Below are positions 14,447-23,021 of a stretch of DNA of 64,000 nt, piece after piece. Position 1 is the stretch's first letter. Every line of letters starts with the position of its first letter. Made by a program: the position numbers and the translations under genes. Source of the stretch: Mycobacterium intracellulare ATCC 13950 (lineage in GTDB: Bacteria; Actinomycetota; Actinomycetes; Mycobacteriales; Mycobacteriaceae); contig NC_016946.1 in assembly GCF_000277125.1 (NCBI RefSeq), forward strand, positions 372,001-436,000, read 5' to 3'. The notes below the pieces were generated by a model that was not told the origin of the DNA, ran no database searches, and worked only from the letters and a program-made list of their open reading frames with translations.

Positions 14447-16663
14447 CTAGCCGGATTCAGCCGGCAGTCTGAAGGTGATGTCGAGGGTGGTGCCGGTGGC
14501 CGCGGTGTCGAGCTGCGTCGCATCGCTGAGCGCCCTGATCAGGGGCAAGCCGCGCCCACCGTTGACCGGGTTGGCGGCCGGCGCCTTCCACGAACCGTAA
14601 TCGGTGATCCGGGTGCGCACTTCGCCGTCGCCGAGGCTGGCCTCGACCACCATCGTCCCCGCGACGAATCCGCGGTAGGCGTGTTCGACGCAATTGGTGC
14701 AGGCCTCGTTGACCACCAGCACGATGTCGGCGGCCAGGTCCCCCGTGATGTGGGCGGCGCGCAGCCAGTCCGCGAGGCGGTGCCGGATGCGAACCAATTG
14801 GTCTGCGGTGGCGTCACTTTCGATGCGTAGCGGCGTCTGGTGGTGGCGGTAGATCACCATCGCGACGTCGTCGTCATAGCCGCCCGCCGGCGCCAGTTCA
14901 CGAAGCATCTCATCGGCGACGGTGTCCAGCGGTAATGTCATCGTCTGCGCCAGAACGTCTGCCGCGCGGGCGATTCCGTCGTCGATCGACTCGTGTTTGC
15001 GTTCCACCAGCCCGTCGGTGAACAACATCAGGGTCGAGCCGGGCGGCAGCACCCGGGTGGCCTGCGGGCGCGGTTCATCGCGGCGGACCGCGAGCGGCAC
15101 CGAAGCGGCGTCGGTCAACAGGGTCGTCGTGCCCGGCTCGGGGCCGGTGAGCACGGCTGGCATGTGCCCGGCGTTGCTGTATTGCAACAGCCCGGTTTCG
15201 GTGTCCAGGATCGCGAGAAAAACGGTGGTGCAGTAGGCGTTCGGGATGAGCGACGCCGCCGAGTCCAGCTGATCGAGCAGCACCGCCGGCTCCGCGCCGT
15301 TGATCAACAACGCTCGCGCGGAACTGCGCAGCTGGCCCATGATGGCGGCGGCCGGCAGGCCGCGTCCCACGCAGTCGCCGACGACGATGCCGATGCGGTG
15401 CTCGCCGATCGGCAGCACGTCGTACCAGTCACCGCCGATCTCCAAGGGCAGCACCGCGGGTTCGTAGCGCACCGTGAAACCCGGCGGGGGCTGGATGGGC
15501 GGGAGCATGGCACGCTGCAGCGTCAGCGACGTCTCGCGGGCGCTCTCGAACTGACGAACGTGCTGCATCGCCAGACTGAGGTGGCTGATCAGCACGGTGA
15601 CCAGCAGGCGGTCTTCGCCACTGACCCAGCGGGGTGTGCGCAGCTCCAGCCACAACGCCAGGTCCCCGGTGCCGGACAGCACCGCGACCAACCCCTGGGC
15701 CTTACCGGGATGATCAGGTGACTCAACGGTTTTCGCGGTCAGCGGTAGTTGCTGGCGCGCGTCGGAGAAGGTGTGACGCAACCACGGATCCAGCTTGCGC
15801 CACGACGTCGCCGCGGGCTCGCCCGCGGTGTGGACGGTCGGGTCGCCCTCGCCGCTGGGCCACATGACCGCGACCACCCGCTGCACGTCGATCGCCGCGC
15901 GGCACTCGTCGAACGTGATCGACAGCAACTCATCCACGCTCCTGGCCACCGCCACCGCCGTGGCCAGGCGCAACACCGCGCTCTCCCGCGCCGCGAATGC
16001 GCGTTCCGCGGTGATATCACGAACGGTCCCGACGTAGGCGTCGCGATCGCTGCCGGATTCCTTGACCGCGTTGATGCTCACCTTCACCCAGGCGAGATGC
16101 CCGTCGCCGTGGCGGATCGGCGTTTCGTAGTCGGCCCTGCCGTGGTTCAGCACCAGGCCGATCTGCTCGGCCGCCGTCTTGGTGTCGACCAGCCACGGGT
16201 GCGGCCACCGATAGGGCAAACCCTCGCTGGGAAAGCCGATGATGTCGATGAAGGCGCTGTTCATCTCGATCACGGAGCCCTCGTGGTCGGCGACGAAGAA
16301 CCCCTCCTGCAGCGAATTCACCAGCGCGTTGCGGAATTTGTCGCGATCTGCCAGCCAATCCGCGCGATCCCGCTGTTCCGCGTAGCGCCTGTTGCCGTCG
16401 ATGAATCCGCGCATGGCCACGTCGAGGGGAGCCAGCAGTTGCAGCAGGAACTCCAGCGCGATCGGCCCGTCGATGCGCACGTCCTTCGCGATCTCGAAAA
16501 CCAGGCGGACGTGGTTCTCGACGATTTCGAGCAGGCTGATCTGATTCTGTAGGGCCGTGCGACCGAGCTCATTTCCGATCGACAAGTTGGCGTCATCGGG
16601 TGAGTCCAGATAGTTGCGCAACGCGGCGGCGTAGCGATCGTGGAAGTCTTCGTTGCCGCTCAT
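14447..16663 (-). CDS. RsbU-like sensor phosphatase with fused anti-sigma kinase domain
   Basis: 738 residues with five parts. Residues 1-90 resemble RsbU_N, the RsbT-docking four-helix domain (RYAAALRNYLDSPDD, then QISLLEIVENHVRLVFE). A PAS domain spans about 105-225 and a GAF-like domain about 230-375. A SpoIIE/PP2C phosphatase spans about 385-605, with metal motifs GGDWYDVLPIG, VGDCVGRGLPAA and YDDDVAMV. A RsbW/SpoIIAB-type HATPase spans about 610-735, with VNEACTNCVEHAY and GGRGLPLI. The layout is like Rv1364c. It probably dephosphorylates an anti-anti-sigma factor such as RsfB. It overlaps rsbX by four bases. Confidence 0.9.
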   Translation of the reverse strand: MSGNEDFHDRYAAALRNYLDSPDDANLSIGNELGRTALQNQISLLEIVENHVRLVFEIAKDVRIDGPIALEFLLQLLAPLDVAMRGFIDGNRRYAEQRDRADWLADRDKFRNALVNSLQEGFFVADHEGSVIEMNSAFIDIIGFPSEGLPYRWPHPWLVDTKTAAEQIGLVLNHGRADYETPIRHGDGHLAWVKVSINAVKESGSDRDAYVGTVRDITAERAFAARESAVLRLATAVAVARSVDELLSITFDECRAAIDVQRVVAVMWPSGEGDPTVHTAGEPAATSWRKLDPWLRHTFSDARQQLPLTAKTVESPDHPGKAQGLVAVLSGTGDLALWLELRTPRWVSGEDRLLVTVLISHLSLAMQHVRQFESARETSLTLQRAMLPPIQPPPGFTVRYEPAVLPLEIGGDWYDVLPIGEHRIGIVVGDCVGRGLPAAAIMGQLRSSARALLINGAEPAVLLDQLDSAASLIPNAYCTTVFLAILDTETGLLQYSNAGHMPAVLTGPEPGTTTLLTDAASVPLAVRRDEPRPQATRVLPPGSTLMLFTDGLVERKHESIDDGIARAADVLAQTMTLPLDTVADEMLRELAPAGGYDDDVAMVIYRHHQTPLRIESDATADQLVRIRHRLADWLRAAHITGDLAADIVLVVNEACTNCVEHAYRGFVAGTMVVEASLGDGEVRTRITDYGSWKAPAANPVNGGRGLPLIRALSDATQLDTAATGTTLDITFRLPAESG

Positions 16664-17284
16664 GTCGAGGTCCCCCTGTGCCGCGCCGTCAGCACCATCG
16701 CGTCATCGGTTTCCTTGGCGCCCTTACCGAGAATCTCTTCCGCGATGGCGACAGCGTGCGCCGAGAAGTCGACGTGACCCAGGTAATCTTCCCCGATCCC
16801 GTCGGTGCTCATCACGAGAAGATCACCGGGGCGGATCGAAATAGCCTGTGCCGGACGGATTTCCGGTATCCGGTAGCCGACGATGCCCCCGGTGAGACGG
16901 GCACTGGACCGGACATGGATACCGCTGGGCGCCTTGGCCACCAGATCGGCGGTGACGTTGCCGACCCCCGTCCACGTCAGCGTGTTCGCGGCGAAATCCA
17001 CCCGCCAACGTCATTGCGACCCCTCTGGTTCCGGTGAGCAGCCGGTGGCAAAGCTGGATCAGGACTTCGAGCCGCTCGGAACTGTTGTTCTTGACCGCAT
17101 CGATCGCGCGCAGCGCAGCCTCCGCGGCGGCCGGCCCGTGACCGAGGCCATCCACCAGACCGAACAGCGCGGCCTCGCCGCCGATGGCGACCGAGATGCC
17201 CCGGTCGCCGGAGGTGTACTCGCTGGGCAAGGGCCGGCCCGCCCTGGCCCACTCGATGGGTCCGAACCGGCCGCTTTCATGCAC
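16660..17284 (-). pseudogene. rsbX: RsbX-like PP2C phosphatase, interrupted by a one-base frameshift
   Basis: Two overlapping frames together encode one SpoIIE/PP2C-type phosphatase of about 207 residues. The first (from the GTG at 17284) gives EYTSGDRGISVAIGG, LVDGLGHGPAAAEAALRA and TGTRGVAMTLA. The second continues FAANTLTWTGVGNVTADL, then PGDLLVMSTDGIGEDYL and KETDDAMVL. Removing one base from the C-run at 17001-17003 (G on the coding strand) joins them as MTLAVDFAANTLTW. RsbX phosphatases reset the stressosome by dephosphorylating RsbS and RsbR. A genuine mutation and a sequencing error cannot be distinguished here. Confidence 0.85.
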
Positions 17285-17690
17285 GGGGCGGGACCCATTT
17301 CCACATCTCGATGACGGTCCCCTGACCGACCGTGGACTCGACGACCAACCGGTCCATCAGGCGGCGCGCGCCCGGCAAACCCATCCCCAGCCCGCGGCCG
17401 GTCGAATATCCGTCTTCCATCGCGCGTTCGATGTCGGCGATCCCGGGCCCCTGATCCTCCGCGCGCACCACCAGGGCCTTGCGCCCCTCCCGGTCGGCCA
17501 CCCCGACCCGGACGGAGCCGCGGCCGGCGTAGCTGGTGATGTTGCGGGCGATTTCGGAGATCGCCGTGGCGATCATGGTGACGTCCGTCAGTGAGAATCC
17601 CAGATCAAGGGCGAGCTGGTGCCCCGCCTTGCGGGCGTCGACGATGTCGTCGGGATGGTCGATGGCGACGACGATATCAGCCGCCACCAT
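17277..17690 (-). CDS. rsbT: RsbT-like switch protein kinase
   Basis: 137 residues, a single GHKL ATPase domain. The N box is AISEIARNITSYA, G1 is EDQGPGI and G2 is TGRGLGMGLPGARRLMD. This size and order match RsbT, the serine/threonine kinase that phosphorylates RsbS and RsbR on stress and is then released to bind the RsbU N-terminus. It overlaps rsbS by 14 bp and rsbX by 8 bp. RsbW-type anti-sigma kinases are similar, but the neighbours favour RsbT. Confidence 0.9.
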   Translation of the reverse strand: MVAADIVVAIDHPDDIVDARKAGHQLALDLGFSLTDVTMIATAISEIARNITSYAGRGSVRVGVADREGRKALVVRAEDQGPGIADIERAMEDGYSTGRGLGMGLPGARRLMDRLVVESTVGQGTVIEMWKWVPPRA

Positions 17691-18066
17691 CGCGCCCGAT
17701 CGTCGGTTTCCGCTGCGCCAGTTGACGATTCAGAAGGGACAGGCCCTCTTCCAGGTCCAGCGCGGTGTTCATGTCGTCGAACGCCAGGCCAAGCTGGACC
17801 ATCGCGAACGCCACCTCGGGCTGCAGGCCGACGATCACCGTGTCCGCGCCACGCAGCCGGGTCATGTGCGCGATCGTGCGCAGCGAGCGGGCCGCGAAGG
17901 AATCCATGACGTCGATGGCGGTGACGTCGACGATGATGCCCTGCGCGCGGAACCGGCTGACGCGCTCCATGAGGTCGTAGCGCAGCCGTTCGGCGTCGGA
18001 GTCTGAGAGCGCGGCCTGCACCGAGGCGATGAGGATCGAACCCTGTTTCAGGATCGGTACTGGCAT
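17677..18066 (-). CDS. rsbS: RsbS-like STAS antagonist
   Basis: 129 residues, one STAS domain (MPVPILKQGSILIASVQ at the start). The phosphorylation site is in DVMDSFAARSLR, with Ser56 equivalent to the RsbS serine in Bacillus. RsbS forms the stressosome core with RsbR and holds RsbT inactive until phosphorylated. It follows rsbR after 22 bp and overlaps rsbT. Confidence 0.9.
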   Translation of the reverse strand: MPVPILKQGSILIASVQAALSDSDAERLRYDLMERVSRFRAQGIIVDVTAIDVMDSFAARSLRTIAHMTRLRGADTVIVGLQPEVAFAMVQLGLAFDDMNTALDLEEGLSLLNRQLAQRKPTIGRDGGG

Positions 18067-18088
18067 GCGGCGCTCGCGTTCCTAACCG

Positions 18089-18991
18089 TCACCCGGTCTG
18101 CTCGCCGGTGCGAGTCACCTCGTAACCCAGCAGCCGCTCGGCTTCCTCGATGCCGCCCTGCAGGTCGCCGACCGCGTTCATCTTCGACAGGTCCAGGCCG
18201 ATCGTCACCAGCGTCAGCGCGATCTCCGAGGACAGACCGGTGATGATCACGCTGGCACCCATCAGCCCCGACGCGTCGACGGTCTGCACCAGGTGGTTGG
18301 CCACGGTCGAGTCGATGGTCGGCACACCGGTGATGTCGATGACCACCACTTTCGCGCGGTTGGCGCGGATGGCGCGCAACAGCTGCTCGGTGACCTGGCG
18401 GGCGCGCTGGCTGTCCAGCACACCGATGATCGGCAGGATCAGCAACTGCTCACGCACCTGCAGCACCGGCGTTGAGAGCTCCCGGATCGCCTCCTGCTGC
18501 TGGCGGATGATGCGCTCACGTTCCTGGACGAAGCTGACCGCCACGGTGTTGGCGATCCGGTTGGCCGCCGGCTCGTAGGCGTCCAGCACCCGGTTGAGCA
18601 TCTCGAATTCGGTCTGGTACTTCTCGAACAGCGAGCGGGCCAGCACGTCGCGGAGCAGCAGGACGATGCCGACGACCTCGTCGGTTTCCACGCCCCGTGG
18701 AATGATGCGTTCGGACAGGTCGCGGGCGTAGGCCTGCAGCGCCTCGACGCTACCGGTCTCGAGCACCTCGACATAGTTGTCGTAGACGGCCGTGGCCTCG
18801 GAGAAGAGCTCTTCGGGCGTCATCGCGGTGAGCAGCTCGGCCTCGGTGATGCGGCGGGCCCATTCCTCCCGCAAAACGGTCCGATTCTGCCGCAGGTGCT
18901 GAACGAGCTGAGGCAACAGCCCCTCGCTGGAAATGCCGACGACTTGCGCTGCGGTGCCGGTACTGGTGAAATCCGACGTCGAATCTGACAT
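18089..18991 (-). CDS. rsbR: RsbR-like stressosome co-antagonist
   Basis: 300 residues from the ATG at 18991; upstream codons in the frame are unlike the family. The N-terminal globin-like sensor spans residues about 25-160 (all-helical, no obvious haem His). A linker (VSFVQERERIIRQQQEAIREL) leads to a C-terminal STAS domain (about 175-290). Thr175 in ELSTPVLQV corresponds to the first Bacillus RsbR phosphosite. Ser228 in VPTIDSTVANHLVQ takes the place of the second, normally Thr. The N-terminus would face outwards on the stressosome and sense the signal, which is unknown. First gene of the rsb operon. Confidence 0.92.
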   Translation of the reverse strand: MSDSTSDFTSTGTAAQVVGISSEGLLPQLVQHLRQNRTVLREEWARRITEAELLTAMTPEELFSEATAVYDNYVEVLETGSVEALQAYARDLSERIIPRGVETDEVVGIVLLLRDVLARSLFEKYQTEFEMLNRVLDAYEPAANRIANTVAVSFVQERERIIRQQQEAIRELSTPVLQVREQLLILPIIGVLDSQRARQVTEQLLRAIRANRAKVVVIDITGVPTIDSTVANHLVQTVDASGLMGASVIITGLSSEIALTLVTIGLDLSKMNAVGDLQGGIEEAERLLGYEVTRTGEQTG

Positions 18992-19170
18992 ATGGCCTCC
19001 CCAGGCCTCCCGAGTACACGTCACGCACTGCGGTCTGCAGTTCCTTTTTGCGAGACTAGCCTGGGTTGTCGCGGGCCACGTGTAGAGGGCATATTCTTCT
19101 CGCAGTTCATAACGCAGGCTAGGGTTGAACCACGCTCGAGGCATTCAAGGCCCAGGACAAAGGATTGCCA

Positions 19171-19539
19171 TTGTCAGCTCCTGATTCGATTACCACGTTG
19201 GTTGAGGACCACGACGGCGTTTCCGTGGTCAGTGTCAGCGGCGAAATCGATTTGGTCACGGCTCCTGCCCTGGAACAGGCCATCGGCGCGGTCGTCGCGG
19301 AGAGTCCCACCGCACTGGTCATCGATCTCTCGGCGGTGGAGTTCCTGGGCTCGGTGGGGCTGAAGATCCTGGCCGCGACGTACGAGAAGCTGGGCAAGGA
19401 CACCGGGTTCGGCGTGGTCGCGCGCGGCCCGGCCACCAGGCGGCCGATCCATCTGACCGGTCTGGACAAGACCTTCCCGCTGTATCCGACGCTCGACGAC
19501 GCGCTGACCGCGGTGCGGGACGGCAAACTCAACGGCTAG
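19171..19539 (+). CDS. rsfB: Anti-anti-sigma factor RsfB
   Basis: 122 residues from the TTG at 19171, matching the length I recall for Rv3687c; another TTG six bases upstream is possible. It is a single STAS domain with VVSVSGEIDLVTAPAL and the phosphoacceptor region DLSAVEFLGSVGLKIL, and the C-terminal segment RRPIHLTGLDKTFPLYPTL is close to tuberculosis RsfB. In tuberculosis RsfB binds the anti-sigma factor UsfX/RsbW when unphosphorylated and so frees SigF. It is divergent from the rsb operon, which encodes the kinase and phosphatase activities that could control it. Confidence 0.93.
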   Translation: MSAPDSITTLVEDHDGVSVVSVSGEIDLVTAPALEQAIGAVVAESPTALVIDLSAVEFLGSVGLKILAATYEKLGKDTGFGVVARGPATRRPIHLTGLDKTFPLYPTLDDALTAVRDGKLNG

Positions 19540-22129: not shown

Positions 22130-22819
22130 TCAGCGCCGGGTGGTGTCCTCGATGACCCGGCGCGCGATCTCGCGCAGCGGGGTGTTCGTGCTCTGCGACA
22201 GTTTGATCAGCGTGTTGAACGCCGTGTGGTCATCGAGGTCGTAGCGCTCCATCAGAATGCCTTTGGCCTGCCCGATGGTGTCGCGGGTGCTCAGGGCCTC
22301 CCTGAACTGTTGGGTGCGGACGACGTTGCTCCACGCCAGGGCGCCCAGCGCGGCGAAGACGGCGGCCACCCGGCGGGAATCGTCGGAAAAGGCGTGCGGG
22401 CGTTCGGCATAGAAGTTCAGCGCCCCCATGCTGAGCTCGTCGGCGTACATCGGCAGTGACAGGACGCTGCGCACCGGCGTGTACGCGAGGGCGTCCGCCT
22501 GATACTTCGGCCAGCGCGAGTCGCTCCCGAGGTCGTCGATGACGACGACTTTCCGGGTCCACGCGGCGTGCACGCACGGCCCCTCGAGGTGGCGTTGCTG
22601 GAACTCGTCGAGCAACCTGGCGCAGTCGTCGGTGACCGAGGGGGTGCTGACCTCGTTCTGCCGGCTGGTGACCGTGATCCCCGCCTCCTGCGCCCCGGGC
22701 ACCCAGCGCGCCGCCGCCCTGGTCAGCTCGTCCAGCACCCGAGGGAAGTCGGCCGCGTCCGCCGAATAGATGGCCCGCAGAACGTCGGTGAGCAGGGTGA
22801 GATCGTCGAAATTGGTCAC
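22130..22819 (-). CDS. GAF-ANTAR RNA-binding regulator
   Basis: 229 residues from the GTG at 22819 ([19 protein letters not shown]); the frame is open a further 13 codons. A GAF domain (about 30-160) shows [18 protein letters not shown] and [21 protein letters not shown]. The C-terminal ANTAR domain (about 170-225) shows [24 protein letters not shown] split by a helix and [24 protein letters not shown] domains bind paired hairpins in mRNA and act as antiterminators; the GAF domain probably senses a small molecule or redox state. Target RNAs are unknown. Confidence 0.93.
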
Positions 22820-23021
22820 TGAATGTCGCCTTCGTGCGTCGAGACCGGTTCCAGGCAAAAACCCGCGCCGTTTTCTCCCAGCCTGCGGTCTCGCGAGGCG
22901 ATCATTTGTCAGTTATGACGGCGACGAATGTCAATGCTGTCTGCTCAGCATTACGGTGAGATCCACTATATCGGCCGGGTTTTGGGTGATTGCGACCGAC
23001 ACCGGACGAGCAAAACCTAAG

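What the first reader, a model, noticed from the sequence alone, without database searches (positions are those of the whole stretch)
14447..19539. Complete stressosome-to-SigF signalling module beside rsfB
rsbR, rsbS, rsbT, rsbX (frameshifted) and an RsbU-like phosphatase lie in one overlapping minus-strand operon, divergent from rsfB. All interaction parts are visible: STAS phosphosites in RsbR and RsbS, the RsbT N/G1/G2 boxes, an RsbT-docking RsbU_N-like domain, and the anti-anti-sigma STAS protein. The classic tuberculosis SigF region has no stressosome in my memory of the genome. The module predicts a full chain from a globin-like sensor to RsfB and then SigF.
Basis: partly seen in the sequence, partly recalled or inferred. 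Interest (0 to 1): 0.85.

Follow-up and report, generated by a model that had tools for sequence, protein, structure and literature searches.

The report
Mycobacterial stressosome operon beside rsfB
This mycobacterium carries a known stress-sensing protein complex next to a switch protein of the SigF pathway; relatives that lost the complex's scaffold, but kept its messenger kinase and the phosphatase it docks on, are the less expected part.

Summary
In detail: rsbR-rsbS-rsbT-rsbX and an RsbU-like phosphatase form one minus-strand operon divergent from rsfB. Corrections: rsbR probably starts at 18991 (300 aa); the phosphatase is RsbU_N-PAS-(GAF-like)-PP2C-kinase, so it also carries a probable RsfB kinase; a globin fold of the RsbR sensor is not shown. 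The rsbX break belongs to this strain or assembly: rsbX is one open frame in 80 of 80 related loci. The system is published (RsbRST-RsbX-RsbUW, M. marinum, PMC8115616), in most slow growers and not in the tuberculosis complex.

New here is comparative. In 62 related loci (60 distinct) rsfB sits divergent beside the phosphatase-kinase, but the locus is dismantled: 31 keep everything, 7 keep RsbT and the phosphatase without RsbR/RsbS/RsbX (about five origins on the tree), 24 have no RsbT. Where RsbT is gone, RsbU_N is decaying or lost while the rest is conserved. That supports RsbT docking on RsbU_N and favours repeated loss over the published late gain. RsbT without its scaffold stays under purifying selection with its kinase boxes, which the Bacillus model does not predict.

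The parts
18089..18991 (-). rsbR, 300 aa: N-terminal sensor domain + STAS with Ser194 and Ser228 at the two phosphosite positions
   Evidence: start by analogy: published M. marinum RsbR is 298 aa (PMC8115616) and most of the 120 listed homologues are 297-301 aa, a few 348-351 aa
17677..18066 (-). rsbS, 129 aa STAS scaffold, Ser56
   Evidence: (solved RsbS chains, best E 3.1e-26)
17277..17690 (-). rsbT, 137 aa switch kinase, boxes E46/N50, D79/G81, G100/G102/G104
   Evidence: (best match SpoIIAB, E 8e-07)
17003..17284 (-). rsbX, N-terminal piece (broken gene)
   Evidence: frame differs from the C piece
16660..17001 (-). rsbX, C-terminal piece (PP2C-like feedback phosphatase)
   Evidence: (SpoIIE 19.6 bits, below the cut-off of 25)
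14447..16663 (-). rsbUW fusion, 738 aa: RsbU_N (aa 10-83), PAS (about 110-221), GAF-like region (by position only), SpoIIE/PP2C (421-607), HATPase_c_2 kinase (618-730)
   Evidence: (Rv1364c structure 3ke6, E 1.7e-43 over PP2C + kinase)
16415..16636 (-). RsbU_N domain, predicted RsbT dock
   Evidence: decays where RsbT is lost
14474..14812 (-). C-terminal RsbW-type kinase domain, N box E653/N657, G1 D688/G690, G2 G703/G705
   Evidence: these six constant in 80 of 80: window plus 79 loci
18992..19164 (.). 173-bp divergent intergenic region
   Evidence: no GTTT-N14-18-GGGTAT match in the window
19165..19539 (+). rsfB, 124 aa anti-anti-sigma STAS protein, Ser63

Best explanation
A stressosome-gated switch on RsfB and thereby SigF. 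At rest RsbR/RsbS hold RsbT, and the C-terminal kinase of the RsbUW fusion keeps RsfB phosphorylated at Ser63, so UsfX holds SigF. On stress RsbT phosphorylates RsbS Ser56 and RsbR Ser194/Ser228, leaves the scaffold and docks on the RsbU_N domain of RsbUW. The dock signal passes through the PAS/GAF-like linker to the PP2C domain, which dephosphorylates RsfB; RsfB takes UsfX and SigF is freed. RsbX resets the scaffold; in this assembly it is broken. Shown here: genes, motifs, conserved locus, and coupled decay of RsbU_N with RsbT loss. Published in M. marinum: RsbR-RsbS-RsbT interactions. Inferred: RsbUW as both RsfB kinase and phosphatase, and the signal path through PAS/GAF. Across the genus the locus has been dismantled repeatedly, leaving either RsbT + RsbUW without scaffold, or RsbUW alone.
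For: Conserved operon and rsfB adjacency: 79 and 80 of 80 loci, 62 of 62 compared loci (60 distinct; six are among the 80). Motifs constant. Where RsbT is absent, RsbU_N is undetectable in 12 of 24 rows and divergent in 12 of 24, two of these only slightly (L170, L172), while PP2C scores stay at the level of comparable RsbT+ rows. RsbU_N-to-core divergence to the two nearest RsbT+ rows is 1.62-3.42 in 11 of 11 RsbT- rows measured; in 160 RsbT+ pairs the median is 1.11, the 95th percentile 1.57, the maximum 3.02. The independent Pfam profile agrees: 11 of 13 RsbT- rows sampled score below the lowest of 13 RsbT+ rows sampled, one of them narrowly (47.6 against 47.8). Kinase role: UsfX matches only positions 2-70 of 127 of HATPase_c_2 and by eye has lost the N-box Asn and G boxes (sequence); RsbUW keeps them. 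In M. smegmatis the RsfB kinase RsbW2 and phosphatase RsfR also lie beside rsfB (PMC10950880, passages), and three loci here show rsfB followed by a free kinase gene (L121, L122, L130). UsfX-SigF operon present.
Against: No binding or activity was tested. Parsimony counts only 6 changes of RsbT state; of 6 independent pairs 4 agree, 0 oppose and 2 do not differ, so the sign test cannot reach significance. dN ratios overlap: RsbU_N/core 2.5-9.2 in five RsbT- pairs, 0.83-2.76 in eight RsbT+ pairs. The genome holds 12 STAS and 5 SpoIIE matches, so RsfB may have other phosphatases and RsbUW other targets. No SigF-type promoter was seen in front of the operon (one strict pattern from recall).
Confidence: 0.72

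Rival explanations
1. RsbUW is mainly an RsbP-like sensor of its own: PAS/GAF signals set the phosphatase-kinase balance on RsfB, and RsbT is an optional extra input.
For: The PAS-GAF-PP2C-kinase core with adjacent rsfB persists without RsbT in 24 of 62 compared loci, and 27 of 164 genomes with the fusion have no RsbT match (lists compared by eye).
Against: Where RsbT is present RsbU_N is constrained: dN/dS 0.09-0.28 in seven of eight RsbT+ pairs (0.47 in L165-L020), against 0.20-0.67 in five RsbT- pairs.
Confidence: 0.4
2. The stressosome operon does not act on RsfB but on another anti-anti-sigma factor or on a non-SigF output; adjacency is inherited, not functional.
For: 12 STAS matches in the genome; adjacency in related genomes is not independent evidence.
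Against: rsfB stays divergent beside the first gene of the operon although the genes between it and the fusion were lost in many loci; M. smegmatis RsfB is controlled by a kinase and phosphatase encoded at the same locus (PMC10950880, passages).
Confidence: 0.15
3. The rsbX break is a sequencing or assembly error, and the module is fully intact in the living strain.
For: 80 of 80 related loci unbroken; a 208-aa database protein (P0241, no source shown), 98% identical to both pieces, is unbroken and represents a cluster of 55 sequences.
Against: A single strain can lose a gene; no reads of this strain were available.
Confidence: 0.55
4. The operon was gained late by slow growers (the published view) rather than ancestral and repeatedly lost.
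For: Published core-gene tree, as described in the text of PMC8115616; the figure was not seen. Some deep forks of my tree are below the star threshold (94/90, 83/76).
Against: On the fusion's tree complete loci occur in all main clades, RsbT-less rows nest among complete ones, decaying RsbU_N domains remain in RsbT-less loci, and L161 retains an RsbR fragment before rsbT.
Confidence: 0.2

Closest known systems
M. marinum RsbRST/RsbX/RsbUW system (Sci Rep 2021, PMC8115616)
   Same: Same gene set in most slow-growing mycobacteria; RsbR 298 aa and RsbS 129 aa; RsbR-RsbS-RsbT interact; same proposed link to SigF
   Different: Here rsbX is broken in the assembly; the neighbourhood series with and without RsbT and scaffold is not in the parts of the paper that I read
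Bacillus subtilis RsbRST-RsbU-RsbV-RsbW-SigB
   Same: Scaffold, switch kinase, RsbU_N dock, PP2C phosphatase, anti-anti-sigma Ser
   Different: Two Ser at the RsbR phosphosites where solved RsbR chain 9o4r has Thr (its species is not shown there); phosphatase carries PAS, GAF-like and kinase domains; anti-sigma and sigma genes lie elsewhere
M. tuberculosis Rv1364c (PDB 3ke6)
   Same: PAS-PP2C-kinase order; PP2C + kinase region homologous
   Different: Per PMC10950880 (passages) it has a STAS domain of its own; here RsbU_N is present and the STAS partner is the separate rsfB
M. smegmatis rsfB-rsbW2 / rsfR-rsfS (PMC10950880)
   Same: RsfB kinase and phosphatase encoded beside rsfB
   Different: Input by a two-component system instead of a stressosome; kinase and phosphatase are separate proteins

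Membership tests
Stressosome (RsbRST) | RsbS: single STAS domain with phosphorylatable Ser | tested here: met
Stressosome (RsbRST) | RsbR: N-terminal sensor + STAS with two phosphosites | tested here: met
   both sites Ser
Stressosome (RsbRST) | RsbR sensor of (non-heme) globin fold | tested here: inconclusive
   sub-threshold RsbRD_N in the window protein, that family precomputed for many homologues, no PDB match of the N-domain profile; structure prediction switched off
Stressosome (RsbRST) | RsbT kinase with N, G1, G2 boxes in the same operon | tested here: met
Stressosome (RsbRST) | RsbX feedback phosphatase | tested here: inconclusive
   gene present but broken in this assembly; single frame in 80 of 80 related loci
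Stressosome (RsbRST) | Megadalton RsbR:RsbS assembly that holds RsbT | not testable with these tools
   interactions and foci published for M. marinum (PMC8115616)
RsbU | RsbU_N dock N-terminal to a PP2C phosphatase | tested here: met
   RsbU_N 65 bits, SpoIIE 143 bits
RsbU | RsbT binds RsbU_N and activates the phosphatase | not testable with these tools
   indirect: RsbU_N decays where RsbT is lost
SigF partner switch | RsfB with phosphorylatable Ser; UsfX and SigF in the genome | tested here: met
   RsfB named by locus and Ser position, not aligned with a named RsfB

The most novel reading that the evidence does not exclude
Mycobacteria have repeatedly evolved a stressosome-free signalling pair: RsbT acting directly on an RsbU_N-PAS-GAF-PP2C-kinase fusion without RsbR, RsbS or RsbX. 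RsbT is then held in check by something else (the fusion's own kinase/PAS state, ATP level or expression), and its kept kinase boxes mean that it still needs ATP or has a substrate other than the scaffold.
Probability: 0.5. Interest if true: 0.62.

Novelty: already known. Interest (0 to 1): 0.42.

Why it matters
The window's module itself is a published system. The comparative series matters because it is a natural experiment on the stressosome: it shows which parts can be removed, gives evolutionary evidence for the RsbT-RsbU_N contact in actinobacteria, and provides RsbT proteins that live without their scaffold. In those, residues such as R49 (one residue in at least 98% of 107 scaffold-bearing rows, changed in 3 of 7 scaffold-less ones) are candidates for the scaffold contact. 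It also bears on a question that PMC8115616 leaves open, namely how SigF is activated where RsbRST is missing: the phosphatase-kinase is still there without RsbT in 27 of the 396 genomes searched.

Tried and rejected
Globin sensor: profile of the RsbR N domain (alignment A3) against the PDB, two matches, best E 0.27, both unrelated. SigF promoter in the intergenic region: one strict pattern, no match; the consensus is recalled. A strong claim of relaxed selection on scaffold-less RsbT was softened: the relative-rate counts favour it in six of seven rows (unique changes in RsbT 10 v 0, 7 v 0, 14 v 4, 25 v 9, 13 v 5, 10 v 4, but 8 v 10 in L164; fusion core about even; four scaffold-bearing control triplets 0 v 2, 3 v 2, 1 v 1, 1 v 1), yet the simple RsbT/core divergence ratio to the nearest scaffold-bearing row exceeds the 95th percentile of scaffold-bearing pairs (0.88) only in L113. 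The Fisher value pools four lineages that I chose (L113, L161, L165, L162) and is descriptive only. The -2.5 sd cut was chosen after seeing the values; with it one RsbT+ row (L169) counts as decayed and one RsbT- row (L170) as intact. The home-made RsbU_N profile was trained on RsbT+ sequences, so an independent Pfam check was added on 13 of 24 RsbT- and 13 of 39 RsbT+ rows. One search failed on a script error and was rerun. Four of the 27 RsbT-less fusion genomes (G180, G221, G301, G350) were not fetched because their places were not listed; G030, whose fusion gene is split, was added by hand. Rows dropped before counting: L145 (fusion cut by its contig).
Full report
What is there. The window lies in a 5,402,402-base single-contig mycobacterial genome. 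On the minus strand lie rsbR (18089-18991), rsbS, rsbT, rsbX and an RsbU-like phosphatase (14447-16663), divergent from rsfB (19165-19539). The listed ORF of rsbR begins at 19144; I take 18991 because M. marinum RsbR is 298 aa (PMC8115616) and most of the 120 listed homologues are 297-301 aa, a few 348-351 aa. rsbX is in two frames that abut; each piece matches relatives.

Reality check. In 80 of 80 related loci fetched by RsbT similarity (the best 80 of 310 relatives) rsbX is one open frame and rsfB is divergent upstream of rsbR; the order R-S-T-X-fusion holds in 79 of 80, the last being cut by its contig end. RsbR Ser194 and Ser228, RsbS Ser56, RsfB Ser63 and seven RsbT box residues are constant in 81 of 81; eleven of thirteen tested catalytic or box positions of the fusion are constant in 80 of 80 (window plus 79 loci). 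Exceptions from the same script: RsbR matches only 61% and 72% of its length in L029 and L037, RsbS is partial in L029, RsfB falls short in L063 and L078. At both RsbR sites the solved RsbR chain 9o4r has Thr (the call does not name its species). The rsbX break is confined to this assembly as far as I could see: among the 55 genomes of 158 with a match to the C piece the window's own has a 116-aa frame, and the only other short ones are G103 (131 aa, operon split over two contigs) and the remote G089 (166 aa frame, partial match with a stop). A 208-aa database protein is 98% identical to both pieces and unbroken. Whether this is a strain mutation or an assembly error I cannot tell. Listeria without RsbX has raised SigB activity without stress (PMC8765406, abstract).

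The phosphatase. The 738-aa protein is RsbU_N, PAS, a GAF-like region (placed by position only; no Pfam hit at E 0.1), PP2C and an RsbW-type kinase; its PP2C-kinase half matches the solved Rv1364c structure. I take it to be the rsbUW of the M. marinum literature. The kinase domain matters: UsfX in this genome (L081) matches only positions 2-70 of 127 of the kinase profile and by eye lacks the N-box Asn and the glycine boxes, so it is an unlikely RsfB kinase, while RsbUW keeps these residues. In M. smegmatis the RsfB kinase (RsbW2) and phosphatase (RsfR) are encoded beside rsfB and RsbW1 is the protein that binds SigF (PMC10950880, passages). I infer that RsbUW is RsfB's kinase and phosphatase in one chain, switched by RsbT.

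What the genus shows. Of 396 genomes of the genus (361 of them at least 90% complete with at most 5% contamination), 138 have RsbT (E <= 1e-30), 131 have RsbS (E <= 1e-25), and 164 have the fusion (E <= 1e-150, query from L128). Comparing the listed handles by eye, every RsbS genome has RsbT, 7 have RsbT without RsbS (G068, G125, G170, G183, G208, G232, G261), and 27 have the fusion without RsbT. In the first 158 genomes RsbX occurs in the same 54 that have orthologous RsbS, plus the remote G089 (by list comparison, leaving out the remote stressosome of G157). I examined 62 loci holding the fusion (six of them among the 80 above, two pairs identical, so 60 distinct): 31 complete, 7 with RsbT but no RsbR/RsbS/RsbX, 24 without RsbT; rsbX never occurs without rsbS; rsfB is divergent and adjacent in 62 of 62. 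For G125 and G068 a whole-genome search at E <= 1e-8, which picks up the RsbR STAS domain in the complete genomes, finds neither RsbS nor RsbR, and RsbX is also absent; for the other five only RsbS was searched genome-wide. L161 has an RsbR N-terminal fragment just before rsbT, a scar of loss.

Co-decay. On a tree of the PAS-to-kinase part (69 rows, IQ-TREE LG+G4, rooted on paralogues) complete loci occur in all main clades, though some deep forks are below the star threshold. RsbT presence changes 6 times and RsbS 9 times by parsimony; scaffold-less RsbT sits in about five places (L113, L161, L162, L165, and L114/L163/L164). Among the 24 RsbT-less rows RsbU_N is undetectable in 12, clearly weakened in 10 and only slightly so in L170 and L172; PP2C scores stay at the level of comparable RsbT+ rows. 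RsbU_N-to-core divergence has median 1.11, 95th percentile 1.57 and maximum 3.02 in 160 RsbT+ pairs, and is 1.62-3.42 in the 11 RsbT-less rows that could be measured (two nearest RsbT+ rows each). In close pairs the dN ratio RsbU_N/core is 2.5-9.2 for five RsbT- pairs and 0.83-2.76 for eight RsbT+ pairs, so the ranges touch. The general Pfam profile gives RsbU_N 47.8-65.0 bits in 13 RsbT+ rows and 0-59 in 13 RsbT-less rows, 11 of 13 below the lowest RsbT+ row, one narrowly. Phylogenetic independence is limited: 4 of 6 independent pairs agree, 0 oppose, 2 do not differ. I read this as evidence that RsbU_N exists to receive RsbT.

RsbT without a scaffold. In three pairs where both members lack the scaffold (all from one clade), dN/dS of RsbT is 0.13-0.19, against 0.04-0.14 in six scaffold-bearing pairs: still functional, somewhat relaxed. 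All seven box residues are kept in 7 of 7. R49, one residue in at least 98% of 107 scaffold-bearing rows, is changed in 3 of 7 (to C, H and L, in L113, L162 and L164), H24 in 2 of 7 and R99 in 2 of 7. The rate evidence is mixed, as told under tried and rejected. In Bacillus RsbT binds RsbU through R19, R23 and N24 and a D92-linker contact (PMC12143880, sections 8 and 9); by recall of the Bacillus sequence H24 corresponds to R23, which I did not align.

What is known. PMC8115616 (read: part 1 of the text, section 6, and part 1 of the discussion; its figures and supplement not seen) reports the same gene set in most slow growers, its absence in the tuberculosis complex and others, interactions of RsbR, RsbS and RsbT, and suggests a late gain. 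Eight full-text searches listed no title or abstract start about scaffold-less RsbT in mycobacteria; the library lacks most subscription journals, including, as I recall it, the 2013 M. marinum paper.

Verdict. The finding is correct as an observation and the pathway reading is the best one, but the system is known; interest lies in the dismantling series.

Noticed in passing
L082 (G000:C1:2917270-2917947): A second sigma factor of the SigB/F/G family (296 bits against TIGR02980, cut-off 234) besides SigF; no HATPase_c_2 match of the genome lies near it.
   Followed up: partly
L081 1093-1527 (+): A STAS protein is encoded convergent with the usfX-sigF operon.
   Followed up: no
L135, L175, L176, L177: Downstream of the complete operon lies an extra RsbW-type kinase gene, with a short STAS-like frame beside or overlapping it.
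   Followed up: no
L115 (G157:C1:1564000-1578000): A remote stressosome cluster (RsbR STAS, RsbS, RsbT, RsbX-like; RsbT 40% identical) with no RsbU_N fusion and no rsfB match in the fetched stretch.
   Followed up: partly
L127 (G030:C49): The rsfB-linked fusion is split into two frames in an RsbT-less genome, as if the whole module were being lost.
   Followed up: partly
window 18497-18991 (-): The RsbR sensor domain is unusually conserved: 92% mean column identity in 11 mycobacterial sequences, against 76% for the fusion in a different set of 20.
   Followed up: no
window 22130-22858 (-): A 242-aa protein that by eye looks like a GAF-ANTAR regulator, about 2.6 kb from rsfB.
   Followed up: no
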